Source of the DNA: Candidatus Avimonas caecicola
GTDB taxonomy: Bacteria > Bacillota > Clostridia > Oscillospirales > Acutalibacteraceae
Length of the DNA: 64,000 bases
Direction of reading: 5' to 3'
Assembly: GCA_904419875.1 (NCBI GenBank)
Contig: CAJFTG010000004.1
Location: 1-64,000 of the forward strand
Positions 1,339 through 61,895 of the stretch are shown piece after piece. Every line of letters begins with the position of its first letter. Within the stretch, counting starts at the first letter, position 1. Below the pieces are notes generated by a model that saw only the letters and a list, made by a program, of their open reading frames with translations, was not told where the DNA came from and made no database searches. The position numbers and the translations under genes are program-made.

Positions 1339-1711
1339 GTGATCAACTGCGTGTGCATGAGGTTGTATCCGCCGCTTATATCGTAAATCACCCCGGAGGG
1401 GAAAGCTATATATTTTCGGACGTAATCTGTCAAGAATCGGTGCTTGTGGGCAAAGAACATTGAAAAAGTCCTGAAACATCGTTATGATGAGGTAAAGCGA
1501 ATCAGAAACGAAAAAGTACGGGGTTCCCCGGATTCAATGGGTAAAATCCACCAAAAACAGAGGGTTTCCACGCAAGAATCGTCTGCCGCCGCCTGGCGCC
1601 GGGTTGAAAGAATGAGCCCGCGCTTCGGCGATTTTATATTGTATTTCGGTGATTTGCTCAAGATATACCCAGCGGATTTTCACAGGCGCTCCTATCATTG
1701 AACGGAAAGGG

Positions 1712-4621: not shown

Positions 4622-4686
4622 AACGTTATCCCGGCGCTGACACCAGTATCCAAGCGGCAAATACCCAGGAAAGGACCGGATAAGGT

Positions 4687-5637
4687 ATGGCGATACAGAA
4701 AGCCAAAATAAAGCCCCGAACGGCATCCGCCGCGGGCAAGGGGAAGTCCGTGGGACGTTACTTGCTAGATCACCGGGCCAGCTACATACTGATGCTCCCC
4801 TTTATGTCCCTTTTCTTCATTTTTACCGTTATCCCCGTGGTATCCTCCATGGGACTGGGATTGACCTATTTCAATATGCTGGAACCTCCCCGATTCGTTG
4901 GCTTCATGAATTTTGAGCGGATGCTGCTGGACGATGAGGTGTTCCTGATCGTATTGAAAAACACCCTGATCTTTGCGGTGATCACCGGGCCCATCGGGTA
5001 TATCATCTCCTTCTTCTCCGCCTGGCTAATCAATGAACTGGGAAACACCCTGCGCACGGTGATGACCTTTATTTTCTATGCTCCGGCGCTGTCCGGCAAT
5101 ATGTATTTCATCTGGGGCATCCTGTTCAGCGGCGACCGCTACGGCCTGATCAACTCCCTGCTGCTGCAGCTAGGTCTGACCAGCCAGCCCATGCAGTGGT
5201 TCAGCGACACTTCCCTCATTATGCCTGCCCTGATCGTGATTCAGCTCTGGCTCAGCCTGGGCACCGGGTTCCTGGCCTTTATCGCCGGGTTTCAGGGGAT
5301 GGACAAGAGCCTGTTTGAGGCCGGGGCCATCGACGGCATCCGCAACCGCTGGCAGGAGCTGTGGTACATCACCATCCCGTCTATGTCCCAGATCATGCTG
5401 TTCAGCGCCGTGATGCAGATCGGCGTCTCCTTCGGGGTGGGCAGCATCGTCCAGGCGCTGGCGGGCTTCCCCACCACCGAGTACTGCGCCGATACCATCA
5501 TCACCTATATCGCGGATGTCGGCACCGTCCGCTTTGAAATGGGATATGCCTCGGCAATCGCCGTGTTCCTGTTCCTGATGATGCTGCTGACCAACTTTCT
5601 CATCAGCCACGTACTGAAGCGCTTCAGCCAAGACTGA
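4687..5637 (+). CDS. ABC transporter permease, MalF/LplB-type (F, cassette 1)
   Basis: 316 aa, about 6 TM segments, EAA-loop EAGAIDGIRNRWQELWYITIPSM. Confidence 0.92.
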   Translation: MAIQKAKIKPRTASAAGKGKSVGRYLLDHRASYILMLPFMSLFFIFTVIPVVSSMGLGLTYFNMLEPPRFVGFMNFERMLLDDEVFLIVLKNTLIFAVITGPIGYIISFFSAWLINELGNTLRTVMTFIFYAPALSGNMYFIWGILFSGDRYGLINSLLLQLGLTSQPMQWFSDTSLIMPALIVIQLWLSLGTGFLAFIAGFQGMDKSLFEAGAIDGIRNRWQELWYITIPSMSQIMLFSAVMQIGVSFGVGSIVQALAGFPTTEYCADTIITYIADVGTVRFEMGYASAIAVFLFLMMLLTNFLISHVLKRFSQD

Positions 5638-5652
5638 GAAAGGACGGACCGA

Positions 5653-6507
5653 ATGAGCGTATTATTCAAGAAAAAGGTGAACCGCTCCCTGGGCGGCAAT
5701 CTTCTGATCTTTCTCCTCCTGCTGCTGATGGGCGGCTTTCTGATCATCCCGCTGATATATGCTGCCTCTTCGGCGTTCAAGCCCCTGGATGAAATTTTTA
5801 TCTTCCCGCCCCTGATTTTCGCGAAAAAACCCACCTGGAACAATTTTATCTGGCTGGGGCAGATCGTCAACGATTTTTGGGTCCCTCTGTCCCGATACAT
5901 CGTGAACAGCGTGTTGGTGAGCGTGGTGGCCACTGTCGGCCACATCCTGTTTGCCAGTATGGCGGCCTATCCCCTGGCCAAGCACCAGTTTGCCGGAAAG
6001 TGGCTGCTGAACACTCTGGTCCGCCTGGCGCTGCTGTTTACCTCCACCGTCACCTATATTCCGCAATACATCGTTATGGCCCAGTTAGGGCTCATCAACA
6101 ACCAGCTGGCCCTGATTCTGCCCGCTCTCCAATCCTCTCTGGGCCTGTATCTGATGCAGAGCTTCATGGCCGGGATTCCGGGCGAGATGCTGGAGGCGGC
6201 CAGAATCGACGCGGCGTCGGAATACCGGATCTGGTTCTCCATCGTCATGCCCAATGTGAAGCCCGCGTGGCTGACGCTGATGATCTTTTCCTTTCAGGGA
6301 ATATGGAACAATACCGGCGGTACCCTGGTGTATCAGGAGAACCTCAAGGTATTGCCCTCCATTCTCGGACAGATCAGCGCGGGGGGCATCGCACTGTCCG
6401 GCGTCACCGCCGCCGCAACACTGGTGATGCTGATCCCGCCGATCATCCTGTTTTTGGTGTCTCAGAACCGGGTAATCGAAACCATGAGCACATCCGGCAT
6501 GAAATAG
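5653..6507 (+). CDS. ABC transporter permease, MalG/YtcP-type (G, cassette 1)
   Basis: 284 aa, multi-TM, EAA-loop EAARIDAASEYRIWFSIVMPNVKPAW. Confidence 0.92.
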   Translation: MSVLFKKKVNRSLGGNLLIFLLLLLMGGFLIIPLIYAASSAFKPLDEIFIFPPLIFAKKPTWNNFIWLGQIVNDFWVPLSRYIVNSVLVSVVATVGHILFASMAAYPLAKHQFAGKWLLNTLVRLALLFTSTVTYIPQYIVMAQLGLINNQLALILPALQSSLGLYLMQSFMAGIPGEMLEAARIDAASEYRIWFSIVMPNVKPAWLTLMIFSFQGIWNNTGGTLVYQENLKVLPSILGQISAGGIALSGVTAAATLVMLIPPIILFLVSQNRVIETMSTSGMK

Positions 6508-6523
6508 ACGGGAAGGGAGCACG

Positions 6524-8641
6524 ATGATGGGCATGAGGAAGGAAATAGCGGGAGGAAACCGGAAAGGCCGCCGATTTCTCGCCGTTTTCTTGGCGGCGCT
6601 TCTGGCTGCGGGCTGTGCCCTTTCCGCGGAAGCGGCGCAGACATCTTTCAGCTATGTTTACAACTCCAAGGACGAATCGGTCCCCACCGCCCTGGCCTAT
6701 GAGCCTGTGGCAACGGTCTCCGGGCTGGAGATGGGCGCCGGGGCGCTGAACAAGCCTCAGGACATGGTGGTATATGACGATGAGGTCTATATCCTGGACG
6801 CAGACAATCAGCGGATTGTGGTGCTGGACCGAGAACTGAGGCTCCGCCGAATTGTGGAGCCTCATAATCCGGACGGCTCCCGGCTGGAGCTTCAGACCGC
6901 TCTGGGGGTCTATGTCAGCGGCCAGACGGTGTATGTGGCCGACCGGGGCGCTCAAACCGTCTACCTGATGGATCAGGAGGGAACGGTGACGGGTGCCATC
7001 CCCTCGCCCGACCCGGCCGTCCTGCCGCCGGATTTTCAATATGAGCCCTCCAAGGTGCTGGTATCCTCCAGCGGATATGTCTATGTGGTATCGGTGGGCT
7101 CCACCTCCGGGGCCCTGATGTTTGATCCCCGGTTGGATTTCATCGGCTTTTTCGGCAGTTGGGACGTAGACGTCACCGAAAGCCTGATTTTCGACAATTT
7201 CTGGCGGAAGATCATGAATTCCCAACAGGTCCTCAGCGCACTCAACCGCCGGCTTCCCGATCCCATGGTGAATTTCGTCATCGATGATGAGGATTACATT
7301 TACGCCATCCGGGGCACCGCCGGAGGGCGGCAACAGGTACGCCGTCTGAATTCCCAGGGTGCCAATATTTTGTATACTCCCTCCGGCCAATGGGGGATGT
7401 TCTCTGAACGGGAAACCTGGTTTGATGAGCAGAACAACGTATATGTGGACTCCCTCCTCTGCGATATCACGGTGGACGAGGAGGGGTTTATTACCGTGCT
7501 GGACAGCACCCGGGGACGGATTTTCCAGTACGATCCCCAGTCCAATAATCTGTTCGCTTTCGGCGGAATGGCCTCCCAGGCGGGGACCTTTCAGTCCCCC
7601 GTCGCCATCGACCGGCTGGGCGAGAGCTTGCTGGTGTTGGACCAGAAGGCCGGGACCGTCACAGTGTTCCGACCCACCAAATTTGCCGACGACGTGCATA
7701 CCGCCTCGGTGCTGTACCAGGACGGGAAATACATCGAGGCCAAGCCCTACTGGGAACAGGTGCTGAAAATGGATCCCAACTATGAGCTGGCCAACATCGG
7801 CATGGCCAAGGCCTGTTCCAAGCTGGGAATGCACCAAGAGGCGCTGGAATACTATCGCCGGGGCAACGACAAGGAAGGCTACTCCGCAGCAGCCAAGCTG
7901 CTGCGGGACGATACCCTGCGCCGATGGTTTCCGTGCGTGCTCACCGGCTTTGTTCTCCTGCTGGGCGGCCTGATATTCTGGCTGCTCTACAGCGAAAGGC
8001 ACCGGAAAAACGACTATATCGTCCAGATCAGCCGGGGCCGGTTCCCCATGTACTGCATGGCCCATCCCTTCAAGGGATATACCGAGCTAAAATTTGAAAA
8101 AAAGGGTTCCGTGGCCATCGCCAACGGTATACTGGCGGTTTTCTTCATCGTCTCGGTACTGAACCGGCAGCTGACCAGCTTCGCCTTCAGTACCAGCGAC
8201 GGGGTCCCCTTCAACCTGCTGCTGGAGCTGGGCAAGACCGTCGGCCTGTTCGCCGCCTGGGTGGTGTGTAACTGGGCGGTCAGCACCTTCACCGACGGCG
8301 AGGGAAAGCTGCGGGAAATCTGGATCTTTACCGCCTACGCCCTGCTGCCCTACATCCTAACGCTGGGCGCTCTGACCCTATCCAGCCATATTTTCTCCCT
8401 GCAGGAGCGGGCGTTCTACGATATTTTCCAGAATATCGGGATGCTCTGGTTCCTAGTCAGCGTGCTGATGTCGGTGAAAGAGGTCCATCAGTATACCATG
8501 AAGCAGACAATTTTCCATCTGATACTGACCTTTGTGGGAATCGCCTTTATCATCCTGATCATCACGGCGGTATACAGCATGCTTGTGCAGCTGTTCGGCT
8601 TCCTGATCACCTTGGGCAATGAGCTGCGGATGCGGTCCTAG
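6524..8641 (+). CDS. NHL-repeat/TPR-like exported protein fused to C-terminal Yip1-like membrane domain (cassette 1)
   Basis: 705 aa: signal peptide, NHL-type repeats (LNKPQDMVVYDDEVYILDADNQRIVVLD), TPR-like KYIEAKPYWEQVLKMDPNYELANIGMAKA, TM, then multi-TM domain with DGEGKLREIWIFTAYALLPY. Confidence 0.85.
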   Translation: MMGMRKEIAGGNRKGRRFLAVFLAALLAAGCALSAEAAQTSFSYVYNSKDESVPTALAYEPVATVSGLEMGAGALNKPQDMVVYDDEVYILDADNQRIVVLDRELRLRRIVEPHNPDGSRLELQTALGVYVSGQTVYVADRGAQTVYLMDQEGTVTGAIPSPDPAVLPPDFQYEPSKVLVSSSGYVYVVSVGSTSGALMFDPRLDFIGFFGSWDVDVTESLIFDNFWRKIMNSQQVLSALNRRLPDPMVNFVIDDEDYIYAIRGTAGGRQQVRRLNSQGANILYTPSGQWGMFSERETWFDEQNNVYVDSLLCDITVDEEGFITVLDSTRGRIFQYDPQSNNLFAFGGMASQAGTFQSPVAIDRLGESLLVLDQKAGTVTVFRPTKFADDVHTASVLYQDGKYIEAKPYWEQVLKMDPNYELANIGMAKACSKLGMHQEALEYYRRGNDKEGYSAAAKLLRDDTLRRWFPCVLTGFVLLLGGLIFWLLYSERHRKNDYIVQISRGRFPMYCMAHPFKGYTELKFEKKGSVAIANGILAVFFIVSVLNRQLTSFAFSTSDGVPFNLLLELGKTVGLFAAWVVCNWAVSTFTDGEGKLREIWIFTAYALLPYILTLGALTLSSHIFSLQERAFYDIFQNIGMLWFLVSVLMSVKEVHQYTMKQTIFHLILTFVGIAFIILIITAVYSMLVQLFGFLITLGNELRMRS

Positions 8642-8677
8642 GAAATTCAACGGTTACCACAAGAGAAAGGCTGAGAG

Positions 8678-10936
8678 GTGCGTATGATACAGGCAATTTG
8701 GCGACGCCGCATCGCGGCGGGAATCGCGGCTTTCACCCTGCTGATTTCCATGACCTCCGCCGCGGGGAACGCGGAAAGGGAGAAGGTCGCGGCTGCGCCG
8801 CCTACAGCAGTCACCCCCGCCGGCCCTTTTAGCGGGCGGGTGGAAAACAGCCGGTTCCGCCTGGAGCTGAAGCATTTTCAGGACGAGGACGGCGAATCGG
8901 AGGCGGCGTATCTGGTCCTATCCGACAAGGAGACCGGCATGGTGTGGAACAGTTCCCCGCCCGACGCCGGAGAGGATCCTCTGGCGAAAAACAGTATGAA
9001 AACGGCGTTAAAATCCTTGCTGCAGATCCGCTATGCGGATCAGGATTCCAACCTTTCCCTGGCGAACAGCGCCGTAAACGCCAGGCGGACCACCTTCCTG
9101 GAGATTCCCGACGGGGTACGGGTGACCGTCCGGTTCGAAAGCGAAGGCATTACGGTCTCCATGGACATCTCATTGACCGAGGAGTATCTGAAAATTACCA
9201 TTCCCGTCCTGGAGATCGACGAGGAAGAAGACTCCGGCATGAAGCTGGTCTCGGTCATCCCCCTGCCCTATTTCGGCGCCCTGCATATGGATGAGGAAGG
9301 CTACATGCTGGTCCCGGACGGCAGCGGCGCCCTGATCGACAGCAGCCGGATGGGCAACGGGGCTAAGACGTATAAGCAGTATATCTATGGCCGGGATCCC
9401 GCCATTGAGCAAAAAACCAGCCAGTTGGTCACCGCAAACGCCCGTCTGCCCGTTTATGGGACGAAAAAAGGGGACGCAGGGGTTCTGGGTATAATCCATA
9501 CAGGGGCCTCCCGCGCCTGCGTCAACGCTTCCCTTGGCGGGGACACCCAATCCTATCACAGCCTGAACGCGGAGCTGATTTACCGGGATTTTGCCACGGT
9601 GGACGTGGGAAAAAAGACTTACCAGTCCATCAAGGTGAACCTGTTTGAGGATAAGCCGGTACAGGAAGAAAACTTTGAAATCCGTCTGTATCCCCTTACA
9701 GGCGAGGACACGGGCTATGTGGGGATGGCCCGGCAGTACCGAGACTATCTGCTGGAAAACGGCGTATCCCCCTCCGCTTCCGCCGGGACGGCGCCCCTGT
9801 ATGTGGAGCTGTTTGGCGGGGTGAAGCGGCAGACCAGCGTACTGGGCATCCCCATGGACCGAGTGGTACCCATCACCTCCTATGAGGATGTCCGGACTAT
9901 TGTGACCGCCCTGCAGGACAACGGAGTGGAGGAGCTGGTGGTAGGCTACACCGCCTGGGGAAAGGGCGGTTCCTCCAGCCGGATTCCGCTAAAAATGCAG
10001 CACGAGGGGGCTCTGGGGAGCAAAAAGGACTGGCTGTCCCTTCAGGAGGAGCTGGCCTCCCGGCAGATCGCCCTGTATCCCGATCTCAATTTCACCGATA
10101 TCTATCAGGGCGGCGGATTCAGCGGCAAAACCGACGGGATCAAAACTATGCAAAAAAATCCTCTGGTGGAATACCGCTACAAGCTCAGCACCTATCAGCC
10201 CAATCCCCTGCTGGAAAACACCTTCCTGCTGACGCCCGGCAAGGTGAGGTCGGCGGCGGATACCTTCGCCGCCTCCCTGAAGGAGGTGCAGGCCGCGGGC
10301 TTCTCCGCCCGCACCCTGGGGCAGAAACTGTATTCCGATTTCGGCCCCGAATCCGTCAACCGTATGCAGAGCCAGCGGATCTGGGAGGAAGCTATGGAGA
10401 CTCTGTGCGGCGCGGCGGGCAAGCTGCTGTTCAGCGACCCCAACGCCTACGCCTTCCCCTATGCGGCCCACCTGACCGACGTTCCAGCGGATTCCAGTGA
10501 ATTTCTCATTGAAAGCCGTTCGGTTCCCTTTTACCAGATCGCCCTGCATGGGATTCTGCCTATAACCCTGCCTGCGCTCAACAGCTGCAGCGATGTACGG
10601 CAGGCCAAGCTGAAAGCCCTGGAAACCGGGTGCCTGCTGAAATACACCTGGGGCGCGGAAAACTTCGACAGCCTGCTGGGCACCGAAATGGACGGCCTGC
10701 TGGGGCTGGACTATTCCCGCTGGCTGACGGAAGCGGCACAGGCTTATAGAGAGGTGCGCCCCCTCCTCCAGTCGGTGTCCGGGGTATGCATCCGCTCCCA
10801 CCGGCAACTGGCTCACGAGGTCTATGAAACCGTCTATGAAAACGGCGTCCGGGTGATTGTCAATTATAACGAAGCGCAGGTGGATGCCCACGGCGAAACG
10901 GTGCCCGGAATGGGATATCTTATCCTAGAGGAATAA
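8678..10936 (+). CDS. DUF5696-like exported protein (cassette 1)
   Basis: 752 aa; signal peptide; VPDGSGALI motif and C-terminal YENGVRVIVNY shared with paralogues at 28265-30514 and 59285-61891. Confidence 0.75.
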   Translation: MRMIQAIWRRRIAAGIAAFTLLISMTSAAGNAEREKVAAAPPTAVTPAGPFSGRVENSRFRLELKHFQDEDGESEAAYLVLSDKETGMVWNSSPPDAGEDPLAKNSMKTALKSLLQIRYADQDSNLSLANSAVNARRTTFLEIPDGVRVTVRFESEGITVSMDISLTEEYLKITIPVLEIDEEEDSGMKLVSVIPLPYFGALHMDEEGYMLVPDGSGALIDSSRMGNGAKTYKQYIYGRDPAIEQKTSQLVTANARLPVYGTKKGDAGVLGIIHTGASRACVNASLGGDTQSYHSLNAELIYRDFATVDVGKKTYQSIKVNLFEDKPVQEENFEIRLYPLTGEDTGYVGMARQYRDYLLENGVSPSASAGTAPLYVELFGGVKRQTSVLGIPMDRVVPITSYEDVRTIVTALQDNGVEELVVGYTAWGKGGSSSRIPLKMQHEGALGSKKDWLSLQEELASRQIALYPDLNFTDIYQGGGFSGKTDGIKTMQKNPLVEYRYKLSTYQPNPLLENTFLLTPGKVRSAADTFAASLKEVQAAGFSARTLGQKLYSDFGPESVNRMQSQRIWEEAMETLCGAAGKLLFSDPNAYAFPYAAHLTDVPADSSEFLIESRSVPFYQIALHGILPITLPALNSCSDVRQAKLKALETGCLLKYTWGAENFDSLLGTEMDGLLGLDYSRWLTEAAQAYREVRPLLQSVSGVCIRSHRQLAHEVYETVYENGVRVIVNYNEAQVDAHGETVPGMGYLILEE

Positions 10937-11081
10937 ACCAGACTATCAAAAAGGTCAAAGGGAAGGCGTGGCGGGGCAAGGCCTCTTGCCGCCGGAACCG
11001 GCAGGGCTTTCCATCTTCCCGCCACCGGCTCGCAGCCCTTGCTCGTCAACGCAGCCCGGCTTTGCCGGATTCCGTTGGCAG

Positions 11082-11110
11082 GCTATCTCATCCCTCCAGA
11101 ATGAGATAGC
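11082..11110 (+). promoter_or_regulatory. Stem-loop GCTATCTCAT-N9-ATGAGATAGC in the intergenic region upstream of F'
   Basis: Perfect 10-bp inverted repeat, no T-tract; could modulate expression of F'/G'. Confidence 0.5.
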
Positions 11111-11151
11111 GGTTTCACCGCCATTTTCCGCGAGAAAGGAAGAATTGCACC

Positions 11152-12072
11152 ATGACTGCCAAAGCTAAGACGCGCGCTCCCCGCGCCGGACTGAATATGC
11201 GCCGCCGGAAAACCGTGGCGGGCATACTTTTCCTCCTCCCCTGGATGATCGGCACCCTCTACTTTTTCATCATCCCTTTTCTGACCGCTTTCGCCTATTC
11301 GGTCAGCGATATCGGGATCACCCCCCATGGATTTGATCTTCATTTCGCGGGCTTTAAATATTTCCGCAGCTTTTTCACAGAGGACGGCGTTTTCCTGAAA
11401 AGCATGGTGGAATCGGTTGCCGGGGTGTTGCCCAAGGCGTTTTTCATCCTGTCCTTCAGTATCGTGATCGCGATCATTCTGCGGGGAAAATTCATCGGGC
11501 GGACCCTGGCCCGGGCGGTCTTTTTCTTTCCGGTGGTGATTTCCGCCGGGGTGGTGATCGTGGTACTCAAGGAATCGGTGATGACCTCCGGAACAGAGGC
11601 GGCCGCCATGGCGCCCTCCTACATGTTCCAGGCCCCCTCCATGACCGACCTGTTCGCCAAGCTGGGGCTGCCCTCCGTCATACTGGATAAGCTCACCCCC
11701 CTGGTCAACCAGATGTTTGATCTGACCTGGAAATCCGGGGTGCAGATTCTCCTGATGCTGGCCGCCATCAACAACATTCCCTCGTCCTCCTATGAGGCAG
11801 CTAACATCGAGGGTGCCACCGAATGGGAGAGATTCTGGAAAATCACCTTCCCCATGATCACCCCTACCCTGGTGGTGGCGGCGATCTACACCATTATCGA
11901 TACCTTTACCGACTATGCCAACCCCATGATACGTTTGATTCAGAATTATTACAAGCAGGGGTTGTACCCGGAAAGCTCCGCCGCGGGAATCAGCTATTTT
12001 ATCGGGATATTCGCGTTGATTGCGGTGTTTTACGCCATCGTTTCCCGGGGTGTGTTCCATGCCAATAATTAA
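11152..12072 (+). CDS. ABC transporter permease, second pair (F', cassette 1)
   Basis: 306 aa; EAANIEGATEWERFWKITFPM; ARAVFFFPVVISAGV and WKSGVQIL motifs shared with 38335-39243 and 58374-59288. Confidence 0.92.
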   Translation: MTAKAKTRAPRAGLNMRRRKTVAGILFLLPWMIGTLYFFIIPFLTAFAYSVSDIGITPHGFDLHFAGFKYFRSFFTEDGVFLKSMVESVAGVLPKAFFILSFSIVIAIILRGKFIGRTLARAVFFFPVVISAGVVIVVLKESVMTSGTEAAAMAPSYMFQAPSMTDLFAKLGLPSVILDKLTPLVNQMFDLTWKSGVQILLMLAAINNIPSSSYEAANIEGATEWERFWKITFPMITPTLVVAAIYTIIDTFTDYANPMIRLIQNYYKQGLYPESSAAGISYFIGIFALIAVFYAIVSRGVFHANN

Positions 12073-12085
12073 GGGGGATGCCGCC

Positions 12086-13096
12086 ATGTCCAAGGGCGCA
12101 GCCGGAACCAAATTACGTAACCGTTTTTTCCCGCGGGGCCGTTCCGTCAAGCGGACGGTGGAAACCGCGCTGAAAATCGTGGTGCGCACATTGTTTCTCG
12201 TCAGCGTGGGCTTCGTCATGCTCTACCCGGTGATTTTCATGCTGACCTCCGCGCTTAAGTCAGCCAGCGACGCCTATGATCCCACCGTGATCTGGCTGCC
12301 GAAGGCCCCCACCTTCGACAGCCTTAAGATCGCGTATGATAATCTCCAGTTTACCAAATCCCTGCTGGTCACGCTGAAGCTGACCGTTCCCTGCCTGGTG
12401 TTCCAGCTGCTGTCATCGGTGACCGCCGCCTATGGGTTCGCCCGCTTCCACTTCAAGGGCAAAAACCTCCTGTTCGGCATCCTCCTCTTTTCCATGATCG
12501 TTCCTGTCCAGACCTATATCGTTCCCTTATACGCCTCTTTCAGCAACTTCAATTTCTTCGGGGTCGGCTCCCTGGTCGGGTTGTTCACGGGCGGTACGCT
12601 GAAAGCCAATCTGCTGGACAGCATGGCGCCCTTCTACCTGATGGCGCTGCTGGGGACAGGCGTCCGCTCCGGGTTATACATCTTTATCCTGCGGCAGTTT
12701 ATGATCAATCTTCCCAAGGAGCTGGAGGACGCCGCCTTCATCGACGGCTGCGGGGAATGGACTACCTTTACGCGGGTCATCCTTCCCAACGTGGTGCCCG
12801 CTATCGTCACGGTGGCGGTGTTCTCGGTGGTATGGTACTGGAACGAATACCAGTTCTCCGGCCTGTTCCTCAGCGGGGATTTCCCGTTGTCGGTGATGGT
12901 CACCACCGTAAGCACCAAAATCGATGCGGCCGGTCAGACCATGATCGGCAGTATGGACGGCCTGACCCTGAAGTTGATGAAGGATTCCATCATGTCCAGC
13001 GCTTGCTTCCTCGTCATCCTTCCCCTGATCGTCATGTACATATTCGCCCAGCGCTATTTTACCGAAAGCATGGAGCGCACCGGCCTGGTGGGCTGA
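12086..13096 (+). CDS. ABC transporter permease, second pair (G', cassette 1)
   Basis: Multi-TM; EDAAFIDGCGEWTTFTRVILPN; ATG at 12086 preceded by AAGGGGG. Confidence 0.92.
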   Translation: MSKGAAGTKLRNRFFPRGRSVKRTVETALKIVVRTLFLVSVGFVMLYPVIFMLTSALKSASDAYDPTVIWLPKAPTFDSLKIAYDNLQFTKSLLVTLKLTVPCLVFQLLSSVTAAYGFARFHFKGKNLLFGILLFSMIVPVQTYIVPLYASFSNFNFFGVGSLVGLFTGGTLKANLLDSMAPFYLMALLGTGVRSGLYIFILRQFMINLPKELEDAAFIDGCGEWTTFTRVILPNVVPAIVTVAVFSVVWYWNEYQFSGLFLSGDFPLSVMVTTVSTKIDAAGQTMIGSMDGLTLKLMKDSIMSSACFLVILPLIVMYIFAQRYFTESMERTGLVG

Positions 13097-13372: not shown

Positions 13373-14719
13373 TTACTGGTGCAGCTCCCGGTACACCTGG
13401 CAGGTTTGCCGGGCCAGCTCGCTGATGGCCACGGGATGGGTTTCAGCCAGTCCGGAATACAGGGTATCCCCCAGAGGGGCCTTCCATTTCTCCGGGATGC
13501 GCTCGGCTCCGCAGAAGGCGCCCATCACCGAACCTACCGTGGCCCCATTGCAGTCGGCATCCATCCCCCCCATGACCGACAGGGTCAGCGCCGTTTCAAA
13601 ATCCCCCCCGGAAAACCGGATCGCCGCCAGGCAAAGGGCCGCGTTGTTGATGGTATGCACCGTATTGTACGCCTTGTATTCCTCCAGCACATTGGTGAGC
13701 AGCTCCTCCCCATCGGCGGCGGCGTCGGCAATCTCTATCGCCCGGACCATGGCCTCATAAAACCGGGAGGTGCCGGGGACTTCCCGCAGCGCGCATTCGA
13801 TGGCCCGGTTGATGTCGGTTTCGGTGAAGGCGGCGGCGATCAGGGCCGCGAAGAACATGGCGCCGTAGACGCCGTTTTTCACATGGGAGAAATAGGCGTC
13901 GGTATACGCCAGTTTAGCCGCCCGATGGGGATCTCCGGCACAGGCGTAGCCATAGGCATCAATGCGGATCTGCGCTCCAATCCATTCCCGATAGGGATTC
14001 AGATAAGTGTTCACCTTATTCCGCTTGAGCAGTTCCATAGCGTGCTCCGGCTTCCCCCACGGTCCGTTCTCATCCACGTTGATGAAATTGAGATACGCCT
14101 GATTTTCCGCCGTGCAGAGCTGGCGGAAGGGCAGCCCATAGACCCATGCTCCGCCCACGTCCCAAGAATCCCAGGAATCCCCGTGGGATTTCATCAGGTT
14201 CAGGCCGATAATGGTATACCGGATATCGTCGTCGGTGGGCATATGCCGCAAATTGTCCCGGGTGCTGTATGTATTGTTGAGCTTCACGCCCTTCTCCTCC
14301 GCGCGGGAATGGGCGGGGAGGTAATTGTCCAGGGGCCAGGCATCCGCCAATTCGCACCATTCCCGAATCGCCTCCCGGGACCAGAGTTCCACCGGCTGGC
14401 CCAGGGCACAGCCCACGCAGCGGCCAAGCCAGGCGCCGTACATCCTGTCGAACAGCTCCACCTCCTCCACCAGCCGGGCGGTATTGCCCAACCGGCACAG
14501 GGGAAGGATCTCCTCGTATTCACTGGGTTCGGTATAGGCGTAATCCTCCCGCACAGGCAGGCGGCCCATCTCCTCATACAGGCGCATCAGCGCCTGACGG
14601 TCCTGTCCGGCTTTCTGGATTCTGTCCTCCATTTCCTTCCGGTCAAACACGCGGCCCTCCTCGGCCAATTGATCCAGCTCTTCTTTCAATAAAATATTGA
14701 GCGTTTGATATCCAGCCAT
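13373..14719 (-). CDS. ADP-ribosylglycohydrolase family protein, predicted cytosolic
   Basis: 448 aa; metal-site-like TDDDIRYT and DADCNGATVGSVMGAFCG motifs; no signal peptide; paralogue at 17946-19439. Confidence 0.88.
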   Translation of the reverse strand: MAGYQTLNILLKEELDQLAEEGRVFDRKEMEDRIQKAGQDRQALMRLYEEMGRLPVREDYAYTEPSEYEEILPLCRLGNTARLVEEVELFDRMYGAWLGRCVGCALGQPVELWSREAIREWCELADAWPLDNYLPAHSRAEEKGVKLNNTYSTRDNLRHMPTDDDIRYTIIGLNLMKSHGDSWDSWDVGGAWVYGLPFRQLCTAENQAYLNFINVDENGPWGKPEHAMELLKRNKVNTYLNPYREWIGAQIRIDAYGYACAGDPHRAAKLAYTDAYFSHVKNGVYGAMFFAALIAAAFTETDINRAIECALREVPGTSRFYEAMVRAIEIADAAADGEELLTNVLEEYKAYNTVHTINNAALCLAAIRFSGGDFETALTLSVMGGMDADCNGATVGSVMGAFCGAERIPEKWKAPLGDTLYSGLAETHPVAISELARQTCQVYRELHQ

Positions 14720-14903
14720 GTCTTTCAGTCTCCTTTATTTATCGCATTGGGCTCATTCTGAAAATATTATAAGTGGTTTATTTTCGCTATTATACAGGGA
14801 AACGGCACTGTTTGGACTGATTTAGGAGATTGTGAGAAATGAAAAAAATTAGCAGCCCAGCGCCCGGTACGGGTAATCGAAGATCAGAAGGTGGTATTGC
14901 GTC

Positions 14904-15656
14904 ATGCCATTCAAGCTCGACCTGTATTATGCCCTATTTCGCGAGGAAAACACCGAGGGAAAATTGCATCAACACAATTTCTATGAAGTGGTATACTACG
15001 AATCCGGGGTCGGCTATACCAACATCGAAGGGGTAAAGTACCGGTACACGCCCGGGACCTTTGCCTTTTTGCCCCCTCGCAGCGCCCACGATGAATTCTG
15101 CAAGAAGAATACCAGTATCCGGATTCTGACCTTTTTCGCCACCGGACCCTGCGAGCAGCAGATACCCGCCGGGCTGTATGCCGACAGGGACGGCACCATT
15201 TTCCGCTGTATTGATAAAATACGGGAGGAATACGCCTTTGCCATGCCCTACATGACCCAGTTCAACAACGTATACTGCACGGAGCTGTACTATACCATCT
15301 TGCGGAACAACGACAACAGCCATGTCTCCGGCAGTATCAATTACGTGATATCCTACATCAACCGCTTTTTCAGCGAGGAGCTGAATGTGGTGAAGCTGGC
15401 GGATATGTGCGGGTATTCGGAACGGCATTTCCGGCAGATTTTCAAGAAGAAAACCGGGTATTCCCCATCCGAATACATCATCAGACGGCGGATTGACAAC
15501 GCCAAGGGGCTGCTGGTTTTCACAAGCGAAAGCATCGTCAATGTGGCCAGCCTGTGCGGCTTCTGCTCCTCCTCTCAATTTTCCCAGCTGTTTAAAAAGG
15601 AAGTGGGGATTTCCCCAAAGGAGTACCGGAAGCAGAACAACGGCCAGGAACTGTAG
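14904..15656 (+). CDS. AraC family transcriptional regulator
   Basis: 250 aa; cupin-like N-terminus; C-terminal double HTH VKLADMCGYSERHFRQIFKKKTGYSPSEYI...FKKEVGISPKEYRKQ. Confidence 0.93.
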   Translation: MPFKLDLYYALFREENTEGKLHQHNFYEVVYYESGVGYTNIEGVKYRYTPGTFAFLPPRSAHDEFCKKNTSIRILTFFATGPCEQQIPAGLYADRDGTIFRCIDKIREEYAFAMPYMTQFNNVYCTELYYTILRNNDNSHVSGSINYVISYINRFFSEELNVVKLADMCGYSERHFRQIFKKKTGYSPSEYIIRRRIDNAKGLLVFTSESIVNVASLCGFCSSSQFSQLFKKEVGISPKEYRKQNNGQEL

Positions 15657-15675
15657 CGATAGTATTTCATTACTT

Positions 15676-15710
15676 GAGGGGGGATTCAAAATCCCCCCTC
15701 TTTTATATAT
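15676..15710 (+). terminator. Intrinsic terminator downstream of araC-type gene
   Basis: GAGGGGGGATT-CAAA-ATCCCCCCTC followed by TTTTATATAT. Confidence 0.88.
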
Positions 15711-15943
15711 AAAGGTAAGGATATGGGGGCCGTCGGAACCATTCCCAGCAATAGATCGCCTATTTTATATACGAAACGTCCGAATTTGTGTAGAACCCGT
15801 TTTTATTATTTAGTATTTTATTTGTAAAGGACTGTTACAGTTTCCACTCCCTGTGAAAAAGACGGCGAAGGGCCCTATCCTGTAAAGGTCCCCAACATTA
15901 CCGGCTATCTGGCGGCCGGCATAGGAAAGGATGATGATGGCGT

Positions 15944-17890
15944 ATGAATCAAAGGAAATCCAAATGGCTGCGGGCGGTCTGTCTATCCCTGGCTGTGGTA
16001 ATGGCGCTGGGCTGCCTGACCTCTTGTAATAAGGGGGGAGAGAGTTCCCTGCCGTCCTCCGCCCCCGAATCCAGCGCCCCGGAATCGGAGGCTTCCGGCA
16101 ATGAGGCGCTGGACAGCGACACCCAACTGGCCTTCCCTGTCGGTACCGAAAAACCGGAAACGGTGGAGGAAAAGACGATCGGCTCCATCGACAAGGAACG
16201 GCAGCTCAAGCTGTTCAAGGAGACGATGGACGCGGAGCTGGAATGGCTGGCCAGCCTGCAGGCGCCTAACGGCGCTATCCCCCAGACACTGCCCGACGCC
16301 AACCGGCAGGCCAGGGTGATCACCTGCTTTTCGGCCCAGACCTGTATGGCCTTGCTGCTCGAGCCGGAAAAATATGGTGAAAACGTGCGGAAATATCTGG
16401 ACTGGTACCTTTCCCATCTGAACACCGCGGAGACTGACGTGTCCGGTGTGGACGGCACTATGTACGATTATGATCTGACCTTCAGTGCCGACGGCAAGGA
16501 GGTCACCGAGGCGCCTGTGGTGGACGATACTACAAAGGAGTATCATTACGATTCCACCGACGCCTACGCCGCCATCACCCTGAAAATTCTGTGGGATTAT
16601 GCCGAGGCCTGCGACGACAGGCAATACCTATTGGACCACAAATCCGAAATCGACCGGCTGGCCAACGCCATCTACGCCACCATGGACGACGGCCTGACCT
16701 GGGCCACGCCCAAATACTTCATCAAATACGTCATGGATAATTTTGAGGTCTGGCGTGGTCTGTCCTCCCTGTCCAAGATATACCAGGAGGTATTTATCCC
16801 GGCCGCCGGTGAGGACAAGGATGCCTGCGAAGCCGAGTTTAAAAAACATACCAAAGCGGCCAACACCGTGCTGAAACAAATCGAAGAAAAGCTGTGGAAC
16901 GACGAATACGGCTATTATAATGTGGGCCTGGACAAAATGGGCAACGTGTATATGGAATTTGATCCCACCATCAACTACCCCTGCGCCATGGCGCAGGTGG
17001 AGTCCATCGCCATGGGGATCATTCATCCCGATTCCCCTCGCGCCAAAAAGCTGTATGAGGGCTTCAACAGCTATTGGTCCACCGGCAACGCCAAAACCAC
17101 ATGGGAAAAGCTGGACATTGGCAGTCTGTTTGTCTCCGCCAACAACGCCCTGTGCGGCGCCACCATGGGGGATATGGAGCGCACCGAGACCTTTATGGTC
17201 TATTACAACTACCGCATTCAGGGCGGTCGCCTCTGGCCGGTATACAATGCCGACGTAGCCATGGTGGCGCTGGCCTGCGCCAAAGGCATCGAATACATCA
17301 ATTCCTGCACCGTAGTGGAGCAGACCGAAGCGGAGGCCTTTGTCCCGCCGGATCCCGCCGTCGTGGAGGGCGCGCCGGTTCTGGGCGGTGAAAACGACAT
17401 CACCAAAAATGGCTCCATCATCTGTTCTGTAATGCCGTCGGAGGTCACCGGCACCGGCAGCAAGGATATTGAGATCATCCGGTCGGGGACCTGGGTAAAC
17501 GCGCTGTCCGCGGTCAATACCTCCCAATACGACACCTTCACCGGCAAGCGGCAGAAGGAAGGCTATGTCGGCATCGATTTTGGTGAAGAGACCTACAAAT
17601 TCACCTCCTTTGCTTTCCAGGAGGGTATGCACTTCGGCAACGGCGGATGGTTCGCTGAACAGCCGAAAATCCAAGTCAAGGTCAACGGCGAATGGGTGGA
17701 CGTGCAGAATCAGAAGTGCGGCAAGGACTATCCTGAGGGAGAAGGCATGGGAGATTTCGGCGACTATTTTGAAATCTATCCCTTCACCTTTGATCCCATC
17801 GAAGGCACCGCCATCCGGCTGTACGCCACCCCCGGCGGCTTCCCCGCTTTCTTCAGCGTGGGACAGATTCAGGTGTGCGGGACCAAATAG
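15944..17890 (+). CDS. Putative secreted alpha/alpha-barrel-like glycan-active lipoprotein with C-terminal discoidin (F5/8)-like domain
   Basis: 648 aa; lipobox LGCLTSC; helical N-terminal region homologous to 21090-22187; C-terminal NTSQYDTFTGKRQKEGYVGIDFGEETYKFTSFAFQEG region resembles F5/8 domains. Confidence 0.6.
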   Translation: MNQRKSKWLRAVCLSLAVVMALGCLTSCNKGGESSLPSSAPESSAPESEASGNEALDSDTQLAFPVGTEKPETVEEKTIGSIDKERQLKLFKETMDAELEWLASLQAPNGAIPQTLPDANRQARVITCFSAQTCMALLLEPEKYGENVRKYLDWYLSHLNTAETDVSGVDGTMYDYDLTFSADGKEVTEAPVVDDTTKEYHYDSTDAYAAITLKILWDYAEACDDRQYLLDHKSEIDRLANAIYATMDDGLTWATPKYFIKYVMDNFEVWRGLSSLSKIYQEVFIPAAGEDKDACEAEFKKHTKAANTVLKQIEEKLWNDEYGYYNVGLDKMGNVYMEFDPTINYPCAMAQVESIAMGIIHPDSPRAKKLYEGFNSYWSTGNAKTTWEKLDIGSLFVSANNALCGATMGDMERTETFMVYYNYRIQGGRLWPVYNADVAMVALACAKGIEYINSCTVVEQTEAEAFVPPDPAVVEGAPVLGGENDITKNGSIICSVMPSEVTGTGSKDIEIIRSGTWVNALSAVNTSQYDTFTGKRQKEGYVGIDFGEETYKFTSFAFQEGMHFGNGGWFAEQPKIQVKVNGEWVDVQNQKCGKDYPEGEGMGDFGDYFEIYPFTFDPIEGTAIRLYATPGGFPAFFSVGQIQVCGTK

Positions 17891-17945
17891 AGGCGATATA
17901 TCCAGGTTTCCCGCGCCGCATGTATTTATGAAGGGATGAACTGCA

Positions 17946-19439
17946 TTGAACATCAAACACCCCATTGCCCTGGCGGCCTGCTGCTGTCTGCTGCTGGCCC
18001 TGACCGCCTGCAATACCAAAGGCGGCGACGCCTCCGGGGGAGATTCCTCGCAAACCAGCGCCCCCACCGATGAGGCGGAAACCATTATCCAGCGGGACCC
18101 CGATATTTCCCGGAACGCCTGGCTGGAGGAAGAAATCGAGCAGCTCTGGCAGGAAGGATACGACATCGACGTAACCGCCTATAAATCCAAAGCAGCGATG
18201 GCCAACGGGGACAAAACAGAGGAAGAAAAGCTGTATTACGAAATGCTGGCCCTCCCCATGCGGGCCGACTACCCGTACAAAGAGCCCTCCGACTATGAAA
18301 GCATCATGGAGCAGGTCTCCCCCAGCATGGGATTTGTGGAAAACCCCTCCAACAGCGAAATGGACGACCGGTTCTACGGCGCCTGGCTGGGCCGGTTTAT
18401 CGGCTCCGCCCTGGGGATGCCCATTGAAATGTGGATGCCGGAGAAAATCAGGACCTGGTATGAGAAGGCGGATGCCTGGCCTCTGGACAACTATGTCCCC
18501 ACCACCTCCAGGGCGGCGCAGGAGGACGGTATTCAGCTCAACAGCCTGACCACTACCCTGGATAATATCCATGAGGTGCCCAGCGACGACGACACCCGCT
18601 ACACCGTGCTCAACCTGCAGGTGCTGCGGCTGTACAACATCACTTGGGACACTTGGGACCTGGGCTCCATCTGGCTGTGGTCCCTGCCCTTCCGGATGCT
18701 GTGTACGGCAGAACGAACCGCCTACCTGAACTTTGCGTGTCTGGACGACAACTACATGGGCGGAAAACCCGCCAATTATGAAACAATCGTCCAGAAATCT
18801 GCCACCTACATGAATCCCTACCGGGAATGGATCGGGGCGCAGATCCGGGCGGATATATGGGGCTACGCCTTTGCGGGGGATCCCCGCGGCGCTGCCAAAA
18901 TCGCCTACAAGGACGCGGCTCTCACCCATGTGAAGAACGGTATCTACGGCGAAATGTATATCGCCGCCATGATTGCCGCTTCCTTCGGTGAGAAGGATGT
19001 GGAAAAGCTGGTGGAGCGGGCGATGGCGGAGATTCCCCAGCAGACCCGCCTGTATGAGGCGGTGACCAAAACCCGGGATTTTGTCAAGGAAAACAAGAAT
19101 CCTGACGAGATCATCTCCTTCATACGGGAGAATTGGGGAAACTATAATGTGATCCATACCATCCCCAATGCGGCGATCTGCACCGCCGCTGTGCTTTACG
19201 GGGAGGGAGATTTTGAGAAAGCCCTCACCTTTACCGCCATGGCCGGCCACGACACCGACTGCAACTGCGCCACGGTGGGCTCGATAATGGGCGCTTACTG
19301 CGGCGCGGAAAAAATCCCAGGTAAATGGAAAAATGTGATCAGCGATCATTTCAATGCCCAGATTTCCGGATTTGAGGATACCTCTATCACCGCCCTCGCC
19401 CGGGAAACCAAGCTGCAATGGGAAATTTACGGGGAATGA
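17946..19439 (+). CDS. ADP-ribosylglycohydrolase family lipoprotein, predicted exported
   Basis: 497 aa, TTG start with GAAGGG upstream; lipoprotein signal LLLALTACN; SDDDTRYT and DTDCNCATVGSIMGAYCG motifs. Confidence 0.85.
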   Translation: MNIKHPIALAACCCLLLALTACNTKGGDASGGDSSQTSAPTDEAETIIQRDPDISRNAWLEEEIEQLWQEGYDIDVTAYKSKAAMANGDKTEEEKLYYEMLALPMRADYPYKEPSDYESIMEQVSPSMGFVENPSNSEMDDRFYGAWLGRFIGSALGMPIEMWMPEKIRTWYEKADAWPLDNYVPTTSRAAQEDGIQLNSLTTTLDNIHEVPSDDDTRYTVLNLQVLRLYNITWDTWDLGSIWLWSLPFRMLCTAERTAYLNFACLDDNYMGGKPANYETIVQKSATYMNPYREWIGAQIRADIWGYAFAGDPRGAAKIAYKDAALTHVKNGIYGEMYIAAMIAASFGEKDVEKLVERAMAEIPQQTRLYEAVTKTRDFVKENKNPDEIISFIRENWGNYNVIHTIPNAAICTAAVLYGEGDFEKALTFTAMAGHDTDCNCATVGSIMGAYCGAEKIPGKWKNVISDHFNAQISGFEDTSITALARETKLQWEIYGE

Positions 19440-19465
19440 GCCCCGGGACATTACCAGGGTTGCTT

Positions 19466-19492
19466 CTCTGCCGCCCTCCCGGGTCGGCAGAG
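19466..19492 (+). promoter_or_regulatory. Intergenic stem-loop CTCTGCCG-N11-CGGCAGAG
   Basis: Perfect 8-bp stem, no T-tract, upstream of the surface-protein gene. Confidence 0.4.
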
Positions 19493-19556
19493 GCTTCCAA
19501 TTTGCCGGTATACCCTATTTGGGTTTATTCAAAAGAAAAAAAGGAGTTGCTAAAGT

Positions 19557-20849
19557 ATGTTCAGAAAACGCAGCAAAAAAGTAACCGCAGCCCTTCTAGC
19601 AGCCGTGCTCTGTTCCGGCGCCGGCGTATTATCCGCCTCTGCCGCCGCTAAGGTGACTGTCGTGGACGAATGCAACGATTTCAGCAAGATTGTCGCCACC
19701 AACGCCAGCGAGGGCGCGTGGTATGATTTCGCCGTGCCCGGGATGGGACAGGTAGAGCAATCGGCCTGGGAAGTGGTGGACTGCCCCTATGTCGAGGGCG
19801 AAAAATTCCTCCAGCGGAAAAACTTGACCGGCGACGGGCAGGTGGGCGGCGGCTGGGTGGTATACGGCGATACCAACATCGCCTCCACCGATCCGTTCGA
19901 AATCGAAGATTTCACCTTTACCATGAACAGCGTGAAATACGATTACAGCCCCCAGGTGAATATTTACGTCAGCGACTCGCTGAACCCGGTGGACCGGGGT
20001 TTGCCCATCGAAATTGAAATCAGCGACCTGGTGGAAATTGGCACCACCGGCGCCGACAAGACTTGGACCTTTACCATTACCCCTGCCGGCAAGCTGCCTG
20101 CAGGTACAAAATACGTGATGGTGGAATGTTTACGGGAATATTGGGGACTGGGTATCCGCAAGGCGGAGATTAACCCCGACAGAAGCGTCACCACCACAAC
20201 CAAACCGGCTGCCACCACAACCAAGCCGGCTACTACCACCACGTCCACGCCGGCGGCTTCCGGTAGCAGTGCCCCCTCCTCGGCTCCCGGCACCGTGACC
20301 AGCACCCGGTTCGAGGACAATTTTTCCAGCGGCTTTGACAAAACCTTCGCTCATACAGAAGGCTTGGCCCTTACTCCCAACCCGGATCTGAAGTTGGACG
20401 CCCTGCTGGGCAAAACCGACGCCGCCGTGCAGTCCATCACCTATCGGCTGTCCGACTGCCTGAACGTGACCGACGGCCTGTCCATCAGGCTGGAAGCCTA
20501 TTGCGTGACAGGGGTGGACGAAGCGGTCAACAATCTGTTCGCCTATGTTTCGGAAGACGGCGAACAGTGGACTAAGGTGACCCTGAAATCCAGCCAGCAG
20601 ACCCTGGTTTCCGGACAGGAATACTGGGATAGCTGCACCCTGAGCGGGTCCGTCCAGGGCACGCCCAAATTCCTTAAGATCGAATTTAAGGAAAACATGG
20701 ATCCCAACTGGCTCACCTGCCTAGGCAGCGTATCCGTCTCCAGCGGCAACCCCTCCACCGGCGGCTCCATTCCGGCGGCGGCGATTTCTCTGGCGGTGTT
20801 TGCCGCCGCGGCCCTGGTCCTGGTCAGAAAGTCCTACGCCGCCAAATAA
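19557..20849 (+). CDS. Cell-surface protein: signal peptide, beta-rich domains, Thr/Pro/Ala linker, C-terminal TM with NPSTG motif
   Basis: 430 aa; TTTTKPAATTTKPATTTT linker; GNPSTGGS-hydrophobic-RKSYAAK C-terminus. Confidence 0.75.
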   Translation: MFRKRSKKVTAALLAAVLCSGAGVLSASAAAKVTVVDECNDFSKIVATNASEGAWYDFAVPGMGQVEQSAWEVVDCPYVEGEKFLQRKNLTGDGQVGGGWVVYGDTNIASTDPFEIEDFTFTMNSVKYDYSPQVNIYVSDSLNPVDRGLPIEIEISDLVEIGTTGADKTWTFTITPAGKLPAGTKYVMVECLREYWGLGIRKAEINPDRSVTTTTKPAATTTKPATTTTSTPAASGSSAPSSAPGTVTSTRFEDNFSSGFDKTFAHTEGLALTPNPDLKLDALLGKTDAAVQSITYRLSDCLNVTDGLSIRLEAYCVTGVDEAVNNLFAYVSEDGEQWTKVTLKSSQQTLVSGQEYWDSCTLSGSVQGTPKFLKIEFKENMDPNWLTCLGSVSVSSGNPSTGGSIPAAAISLAVFAAAALVLVRKSYAAK

Positions 20850-20935
20850 TCTCACGAACCGCGCGCTTGCACACCGTCACCCACACCCAGATTGTTTGAC
20901 CGGGCGGTATATACGGGAATAACACTTCCGGCAGG

Positions 20936-20981
20936 GCCGGACAGTCCGGCGAGGCTGTCCGGCTCTTGCGCCCATTTTTTC
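20936..20981 (+). terminator. Possible terminator or attenuator hairpin after surface-protein gene
   Basis: GCCGGACAG-N10-CTGTCCGGC; a T6 run begins about 12 nt later, so spacing is imperfect. Confidence 0.4.
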
Positions 20982-21089
20982 AGAGGATGTAAGCGGCCAA
21001 GCGCCCCGGTCTCCTGGGTTCTCCGTCGGCCTACGGCGCAGCGATGACGGAATCCACAGCACCATGTCCATAAGGAGGACGATAACCTG

Positions 21090-22187
21090 ATGCAATCCTA
21101 TACAACCGATACAAGCTATGATGGTTTTCGGCTTTCCGCATTCATTCAGGAGGAAGCGGACAGGCTGGCGTCGATGCAGCTTTCCAACGGCGCACTGCCC
21201 CTGAACCCTCTCGTTTTAGGAAAATCCGTGCGGATCTGCCCCTATTTTTCTTCATTCGCGGCGCTGGCCCTTTTGTCCGCTTCTCCCAGCTATAACGGAA
21301 ATGTCCGACGGTATATCGAGTGGTATTTTGCCCATCTGAATACGGCCGGGAGCGACTATAACGGGTTGGACGGCACCATCTACGACTACACCATTAAGGA
21401 GTCCGATGCAGGGTTGGCGGAGGCCCCCCTATGTGACGAAACGGAAACCCCCGTATATGATTCCACCGATTCCTATGCCGCCCTGTTCCTGACCGTGCTC
21501 GCGGAATATGGAGAGAAAACCGGCGATCTGGAAACCCTGCGCCGGTATCAGGAGGAGATTGGGCGGGTGATTCGCGCCATGCTGGGCACTCTGGACAAAG
21601 GTCTCACCTATGCCCGGCCAGATTATCCCGTGAAATACACCATGGATAACTGTGAAACGGCCCGGGGACTCTCCAGCGCGTTTCGCCTAAGCCGCTTTAT
21701 TCCCGGCCTGGACGGAGAAGCTCTCCACCGGGCGTACCGCAAGGTGACCCAGGCAATCGAGCGGTGCCTTTGGAACCGGAACCTGGGGTATTACGAGGTG
21801 GGGCTGGACGGCCGGAACACCCCTGTCACCCAGACCTTCGACTGGAAGCGCTTTTATCCGGACGCCATGGCTCAGGCGTTTCCCATCCTGATGGAGGTGC
21901 AGCCGCCGGGTTCCGGCCGGGCGCAGTATCTGTACCGGGAGCTGACCGGACAGTTTCCTCCGGCGGCCATGGAGGGAGACCTGCTGCTCAATGCGGGAAT
22001 GCTGGCTTTGCTAGCCGCCCAGATGGGAGACGCGGACACCGCCCGGAAGTATCTGGATATACACCGGCAGGCTTTCTGCCAGAGCGGCCAGGGCGGCCGG
22101 ATCAGCTGCCAGGTCTATGCCTTGGGGCTTTTGGCCGCCTCTATCCTTCAAGCCCAAAGCGCGGGCACGGCCGCGTGTACAGCCTGA
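21090..22187 (+). CDS. Signal-less alpha/alpha-barrel-like protein, paralogue of 15944-17890 N-terminal region
   Basis: 365 aa; shared WYFAHLNTAGSDYNGLDGTIYDY, YDSTDSYAALFL, YTMDNCETARGLSS; AGGAGG RBS. Confidence 0.7.
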   Translation: MQSYTTDTSYDGFRLSAFIQEEADRLASMQLSNGALPLNPLVLGKSVRICPYFSSFAALALLSASPSYNGNVRRYIEWYFAHLNTAGSDYNGLDGTIYDYTIKESDAGLAEAPLCDETETPVYDSTDSYAALFLTVLAEYGEKTGDLETLRRYQEEIGRVIRAMLGTLDKGLTYARPDYPVKYTMDNCETARGLSSAFRLSRFIPGLDGEALHRAYRKVTQAIERCLWNRNLGYYEVGLDGRNTPVTQTFDWKRFYPDAMAQAFPILMEVQPPGSGRAQYLYRELTGQFPPAAMEGDLLLNAGMLALLAAQMGDADTARKYLDIHRQAFCQSGQGGRISCQVYALGLLAASILQAQSAGTAACTA

Positions 22188-28220: not shown

Positions 28221-28264
28221 CGGATTTTCCTCCTTTTCCTTTTTGAACCCGCTTAAGCCCCAAC

Positions 28265-32722: not shown

Positions 32723-32735
32723 GTAAGGCCCTCCT

Positions 32736-33599: not shown

Positions 33600-33637
33600 C
33601 ACGCACTCCTCTTTTTCTTGAATCGGAAAGGGCTGGG

Positions 33638-34534: not shown

Positions 34535-34561
34535 ACGGACACCTCCTCGTTCCCTGCCGGG

Positions 34562-56484: not shown

Positions 56485-56545
56485 ATGGCGCATTCCTTTC
56501 TCGAAGAATCATATTTCGTCCGAACCGTTGCCGGCAAGACTTCGG

Positions 56546-61891: not shown

Positions 61892-61895
61892 GCAC

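What the first reader, a model, noticed from the sequence alone, without database searches (positions are those of the whole stretch)
13373..22187. Two enzyme families each present as an exported plus a cytosolic paralogue in one locus
ADP-ribosylglycohydrolase-like: lipoprotein at 17946-19439 and signal-less copy at 13373-14719. Alpha/alpha-barrel-like: lipoprotein at 15944-17890 and signal-less copy at 21090-22187. With 54250-56484 this makes three inside/outside pairs in the window. This suggests a substrate trimmed outside, imported as an oligomer, and cut at the same linkage inside.
Basis: partly seen in the sequence, partly recalled or inferred. Interest (0 to 1): 0.74.

Follow-up and report, generated by a model that had tools for sequence, protein, structure and literature searches.

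The report
Paired surface and cytosolic glycosidase-fold enzymes
A gut bacterium's sugar-uptake gene cluster carries two hydrolase-fold families, each as one copy anchored outside the cell and one copy inside, and such pairs recur in other gut Clostridia, so the arrangement looks selected rather than accidental, although the substrate is unknown.

Summary
13373-14719 and 17946-19439 are PF03747 (ADP-ribosylglycohydrolase-fold) paralogues, 47% identical. 15944-17890 and 21090-22187 are paralogues of a family absent from Pfam, 38% identical, whose AlphaFold model is an (alpha/alpha)6 barrel. One of each pair has a lipoprotein signal; the other has no room upstream for one. A third pair (54250-56493) is a GH18-like TIM barrel.

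Comparative data partly support the inside/outside idea. The barrel family is mostly exported, so its cytosolic copy is the exception; long-form ADP-ribosylglycohydrolases are cytosolic, and the window lipoprotein arose inside that clade. A separate clade of exported PF03747 lipoproteins occurs in 18 of 63 genomes of another family in the order, in six of them next to a cytosolic copy. Its C-terminal domain is shared with the window's barrel lipoprotein. A goat-caecum genome has a lipoprotein plus cytosolic barrel pair in the same kind of transporter module. A congener carries a deletion scar joining the transporter gene to the cytosolic barrel gene.

Not shown: the substrate, hydrolysis, or 'same linkage'. 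The window's cytosolic barrel lacks a C-terminal motif (YPLYNAD) that its partner keeps.

The parts
13373..14719 (-). Cytosolic PF03747 ADP-ribosylglycohydrolase-fold protein (448 aa, 'MAGYQ' clade)
   Evidence: Pfam E 1.2e-48; only 5 codons upstream to a stop; up to 57% identical to cytosolic homologues in family f20
17946..19439 (+). Lipoprotein PF03747 paralogue (497 aa, signal MNIKHPIALAACCCLLLALTAC)
   Evidence: nested in the cytosolic clade in the tree
15944..17890 (+). Lipoprotein (alpha/alpha)6-barrel protein (648 aa) with a C-terminal ~150-aa domain shared with exported ADP-ribosylglycohydrolases elsewhere
17429..17887 (+). C-terminal domain of the barrel lipoprotein (weak F5/F8 type C-like Pfam hit)
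   Evidence: 42-46% identical to the C-terminal domain of exported PF03747 lipoproteins; E 0.019 to PF22633
21090..22187 (+). Cytosolic (alpha/alpha)6-barrel paralogue (365 aa); lacks the C-terminal YPLYNAD motif
14904..15656 (+). AraC-family regulator with cupin sensor
   Evidence: Pfam HTH_AraC, HTH_18, AraC_binding
19557..20849 (+). Exported protein with T/P-rich linker and C-terminal hydrophobic anchor
   Evidence: sequence; no Pfam or NCBIfam match
1649..4621 (+). Large solute-binding protein with long N-terminal extension
   Evidence: PF01547 at residues 602-890
4687..6507 (+). Two ABC permeases (4687-5637, 5653-6507)
   Evidence: orthologues conserved in the L027/L028 modules; not run against Pfam
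6524..8641 (+). NHL-TPR-Yip1 membrane protein
   Evidence: Pfam
8678..10936 (+). DUF5696 protein
   Evidence: PF18952 E 7.9e-174
11152..13096 (+). Two more ABC permeases (11152-12072, 12020-13096)
   Evidence: PF00528 (the first is below the curated cut-off)
54250..55200 (-). Cytosolic GH18-like TIM-barrel protein
55222..56493 (-). Lipoprotein paralogue of 54250-55200

Best explanation
This is a carbohydrate-uptake locus of a gut Clostridia bacterium. A DUF5696-type ABC module (solute-binding proteins, four permeases, NHL/Yip1 protein) and an AraC regulator come with two hydrolase-fold families, each split by duplication and gain or loss of a lipoprotein signal into a cell-surface and a cytosolic version. 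The surface copies act on an extracellular glycoconjugate that at least some of them hold through a C-terminal binding domain, the module imports the products, and the cytosolic copies finish the breakdown. Shown: the paralogy, the locations by sequence signal, the folds, the conserved metal or acidic motifs, and recurrence of pairs in other genomes. Inferred: that both families hydrolyse parts of one substrate, import of the product, and that pair members act on the same or closely related bonds.
For: genes, domains, paralogy; folds; both ADP-ribosylglycohydrolase copies keep T/S-D-D-D, D-x-D-C, NPYREWIGAQIR; shared invariant residues of the barrel family: E22, D124, D127, D186, E189; barrel lipoprotein inside the same transporter operon in L027 and L028; L066: permease, barrel lipoprotein, barrel cytosolic, then a solute-binding-protein match; exported PF03747 lipoproteins in 18 of 63 genomes, adjacent to a cytosolic copy in six: G596, G554, G575, G565, G590, G671; overlap with the MAGYQ-type cytosolic enzyme in 12 genomes, Fisher p 0.004; operon L259: exported, cytosolic, HAD hydrolase, solute-binding lipoprotein; same C-terminal domain on the barrel lipoprotein and on exported PF03747 proteins; 65 (exported PF03747 proteins fall in two separate places); 81/83 (congener G275: deletion scar joins the large binding-protein gene to the cytosolic barrel gene, so the two ends of the locus lay in the same order and strand in an ancestor).
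Against: No substrate or activity is known. The cytosolic barrel copy lost a near-invariant C-terminal motif, and the remnant in the congener shows the same loss. Co-occurrence statistics are not corrected for phylogeny; four of the six genomes with adjacent pairs are close relatives. Six genomes have an exported PF03747 protein without the MAGYQ-type cytosolic one (five of these have a shorter cytosolic PF03747 protein). Most barrel homologues are single, exported and not beside this transporter module.
Confidence: 0.5

Rival explanations
1. The pairs are paralogues that have diverged in specificity: outside and inside copies cut different bonds (or one copy has become a binding or regulatory protein) of the same glycoconjugate.
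For: The cytosolic barrel copy lacks the YPLYNAD motif and has the longer branch of its pair; the L066 cytosolic copy also has the longer branch (1.16 against 0.38); pair identities are only 27-47%.
Against: Motifs expected at the metal site are the same in both ADP-ribosylglycohydrolase copies; most invariant barrel residues are shared; the L066 cytosolic copy keeps KPLYNAD.
Confidence: 0.3
2. The ADP-ribosylglycohydrolases are true ADP-ribose enzymes: the surface copy removes ADP-ribose from extracellular or surface molecules (nutrient scavenging or protection) and the cytosolic copy handles the imported or internal form; the barrel pair is a separate matter.
For: Metal motif of PF03747 retained; a nucleoside hydrolase-family gene lies nearby at 23020-23976.
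Against: Both window copies score far below the DRAG and Tri1 equivalog cut-offs (33 and 28 bits against 337; 24 and 23 against 490). The C-terminal domain of exported PF03747 proteins is shared with a barrel lipoprotein. The nucleoside hydrolase gene is on the other strand next to a different module.
Confidence: 0.15
3. Chance outcome of local duplication with drift of the export signal; no functional pairing.
For: The pair members in the window may be local duplicates; barrel pairs were seen in only two of about 85 loci.
Against: Export of PF03747 proteins arose in two separate places and adjacency with a cytosolic copy recurs; both families show the pattern in one locus.
Confidence: 0.1

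Closest known systems
PF03747 ADP-ribosylglycohydrolase family (DraG, ARH1/ARH3, Tri1)
   Same: Fold by profile match and both Asp-rich metal motifs in both window copies
   Different: About 90-residue N-terminal extension; Cys where DraG has Thr after the second Asp pair (alignment); far below DRAG and Tri1 equivalog cut-offs; one copy is a surface lipoprotein
(alpha/alpha)6-barrel glycosidases (PDB 5z3a-e and 7c24/7c25 'Glycosidase', MmpH 7qsj, GH78, Rex8A)
   Same: Overall fold, TM about 0.55-0.7; conserved acidic residues
   Different: 11-15% identity; no Pfam or significant PDB sequence match; catalytic residues not established
GH18 chitinases and endo-beta-N-acetylglucosaminidases (third pair)
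   Same: TIM-barrel fold (TM about 0.5-0.57) and an HxDxEP motif where GH18 has DxDxE (motif comparison from memory)
   Different: 10-16% identity and no Pfam match
Gram-positive gut glycan-utilisation loci: surface hydrolase, ABC importer, intracellular hydrolases (for example beta-mannan use by Faecalibacterium, PMC8262883, abstract only)
   Same: Gene layout: surface enzyme, solute-binding proteins, permeases, cytosolic enzymes, regulator
   Different: Same enzyme family used on both sides; DUF5696/NHL/Yip1 components, with no paper found for DUF5696; four permeases

Membership tests
PF03747 ADP-ribosylglycohydrolase fold | Profile match above the gathering score | tested here: met
   166.7 and 167.1 bits against 26.2
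PF03747 ADP-ribosylglycohydrolase fold | Two Asp-rich metal-binding motifs | tested here: met
   TDDD/SDDD and DADC/DTDC in the two window copies
DraG or Tri1 functional equivalogs | Score above NCBIfam equivalog cut-off | tested here: not met
   33.2 and 28.3 against 337; 23.7 and 22.6 against 490
ADP-ribosyl hydrolase by activity | Release of ADP-ribose from a substrate | not testable with these tools
   needs an assay
(alpha/alpha)6-barrel glycosidase | Six-hairpin fold | tested here: met
   AF2 model pLDDT 86, PDB matches E about 1e-7
(alpha/alpha)6-barrel glycosidase | Membership in a described glycosidase sequence family | tested here: not met
   no Pfam, NCBIfam or significant PDB sequence match for the barrel; CAZy was not available
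Inside/outside pair acting on one linkage | Conserved active-site residues in both members | tested here: inconclusive
   met for the ADP-ribosylglycohydrolase pair; the barrel pair shares most invariant residues but the cytosolic copy lacks YPLYNAD
Inside/outside pair acting on one linkage | Co-retention of both members across genomes | tested here: inconclusive
   ADP-ribosylglycohydrolase: 12 of 18 genomes with the exported form have the MAGYQ cytosolic form, p 0.004 without phylogenetic correction; barrel: pairs in only two loci
Lipoprotein | Signal peptide with lipobox | tested here: met
   sequence reading of 15944, 17946, 55222; no dedicated predictor run

The most novel reading that the evidence does not exclude
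Exported PF03747 lipoproteins of gut Clostridia are unrecognised glycan (or riboside) hydrolases on the cell surface, paired with cytosolic PF03747 partners and sharing a carbohydrate-binding-like domain with a second, undescribed (alpha/alpha)6-barrel glycosidase family. This would be a new catabolic use of the ADP-ribosylglycohydrolase fold.
Probability: 0.35. Interest if true: 0.68.

Novelty: new variant of a known kind. Interest (0 to 1): 0.5.

Why it matters
PF03747 enzymes are mostly discussed as intracellular ADP-ribose erasers. A recurrent surface-anchored form, next to a cytosolic form and sharing a domain with a glycosidase-fold lipoprotein, points to a catabolic role that a few assays could test. 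The barrel family has no Pfam model, although over 200 matching stretches were found in one genome collection.

Tried and rejected
An early reading that the L028 barrel copy is cytosolic was wrong: a start further upstream gives a lipoprotein. Whether cytosolic barrel copies arose independently in the window and in L066 could not be settled (AU p 0.28 for one clade). The exported PF03747 proteins of family f20 are not the ancestor of the window lipoprotein: it nests in the cytosolic clade. A second pair of TIM-barrel genes on contig C38 is not an inside/outside pair as read here: one copy is a lipoprotein, the other begins in a T-rich linker and has an in-frame TGA further up. Literature searches for DUF5696 gave no paper, and those for glycan-acting or exported ADP-ribosylglycohydrolases gave nothing relevant. 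The substrate could not be read from the neighbours: barrel homologues sit near BNR (sialidase-like) genes or a UxuA gene, or among housekeeping genes.

Full report
The four ORFs named in the finding are real and correctly placed. 13373-14719 and 17946-19439 match PF03747 with E about 1e-48 and are 47% identical over 436 residues. 15944-17890 and 21090-22187 have no Pfam or NCBIfam family apart from a sub-threshold F5/F8 hit at the C-terminus of the first and are 38% identical over 339 residues.

Locations were judged from sequence. 15944, 17946 and 55222 begin with a basic start, a hydrophobic stretch and a lipobox. The other members (21090, 13373, 54250) have 14, 5 and 7 codons between their start and the preceding stop, so a hidden signal does not fit. 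17946 uses TTG, and no other in-frame start precedes the lipobox.

The barrel family was modelled by AlphaFold from 13 homologues (pLDDT 86, pTM 0.87). The model matches (alpha/alpha)6 glycosidases and sugar epimerases in the PDB. The TIM pair model (pLDDT 88) is closest to GH18 chitinases and other TIM-barrel glycosidases.

Surroundings: 1649-13096 encodes a large solute-binding protein, two permeases, an NHL-TPR-Yip1 protein, a DUF5696 protein and two more permeases. The same order is found in ruminant-gut genomes L027 and L028, followed there by a barrel lipoprotein and a second solute-binding protein. In L066 (goat caecum) two permeases are followed by a barrel lipoprotein and then a barrel protein without signal, with a solute-binding-protein match after it. 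In the congener G275 a stretch matching residues 35-316 of the large binding protein, itself broken by stops and a frame change, is joined to one matching the cytosolic barrel protein from residue 189 on. This is best read as a deletion scar: the binding-protein gene and the cytosolic barrel gene bounded one stretch in an ancestor.

Direction of change differs between the families. Of 97 barrel homologue entries examined (duplicates included), 86 were called exported, and the window and L066 hold the only lipoprotein-plus-cytosolic pairs seen. A tree puts each cytosolic copy next to its own lipoprotein partner, but one joint origin of the two cytosolic copies is not rejected (AU p 0.28), and long branches make placement unsure. 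For PF03747 the reverse holds: of about 58 long-form homologues in the family and order none but 17946-19439 showed an export signal, and many appear to carry an N-terminal helix-turn-helix. The window lipoprotein nests within this cytosolic group (SH-aLRT 99), so it most likely gained its signal.

A second, separate group of exported PF03747 proteins turned up in family f20 of the same order: lipoproteins of about 660 aa with PF03747, PKD and a C-terminal domain. They occur in 18 of 63 genomes. In G596, G554, G575, G565, G590 and G671 a cytosolic PF03747 gene is adjacent. The MAGYQ-type cytosolic enzyme, the kin of 13373-14719, is in 24 genomes and overlaps in 12 (Fisher one-sided p 0.004); any cytosolic-type match is found in 17 of 18 against 25 of 45 (p 0.002). 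These tests ignore shared descent. In L259 the order is exported PF03747, cytosolic PF03747, HAD hydrolase, solute-binding lipoprotein.

The C-terminal domain of the window's barrel lipoprotein (17429-17887) is 42% identical to the C-terminal domain of those exported PF03747 proteins, and a related domain ends two DUF4185 lipoproteins on contig C2. In L088 and L092 an exported barrel gene lies beside a divergently oriented cytosolic PF03747 gene. So the two families are linked by genome context and by a shared domain outside this window too.

Active sites: both window PF03747 copies keep the (T/S)DDD and DxDC motifs and the NPYREWIGAQIR and HVKNGxYG blocks. Both barrel copies keep E22, D124, D127, D186 and E189 (numbering of 21090-22187). 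The cytosolic barrel copy lacks the YPLYNAD motif near the C-terminus, which the lipoprotein keeps as WPVYNAD; the remnant in G275 also lacks it, so the loss appears to predate the split of the two species. The L066 cytosolic copy keeps KPLYNAD.

Oligomer import and a shared linkage are plausible but untested. No paper on DUF5696, and none on exported PF03747 enzymes, was found in the held library.

Noticed in passing
window 1649-13096, 25026-43728, 57458-63998; L167, L172, L174, L039: Several related modules of solute-binding protein, large binding protein, permeases, NHL, Yip1 and DUF5696 in one genus, most in this one genome, each with different hydrolases. DUF5696 has no paper in the held library.
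   Followed up: partly
L128-L149, L192-L200 (for example L131, L137): Many cytosolic PF03747 proteins appear to carry an N-terminal XRE-like helix-turn-helix in the same frame, suggesting a regulator fused to an ADP-ribosylglycohydrolase.
   Followed up: no
L167 (contig C38): TIM-barrel lipoprotein and GH20-like gene beside genes resembling UxuA, a sugar kinase and a KDPG aldolase, hinting at a hexosamine-uronate substrate; one TIM gene has an in-frame TGA.
   Followed up: no
window 45232-46890 and 52294-54237: GH123 and GH20C enzymes, both typical of hexosamine-containing glycans.
   Followed up: partly
L040 (contig C2, 49-53 kb): Two tandem DUF4185 lipoproteins ending in the same kind of C-terminal domain as the barrel lipoprotein.
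   Followed up: partly
L102, L105 (Paenibacillus): Barrel domains in tandem, both exported; in L102 fused in one 1012-aa protein.
   Followed up: partly
L027 6789-8075: DUF4434 gene next to the solute-binding protein of the barrel-containing module.
   Followed up: no
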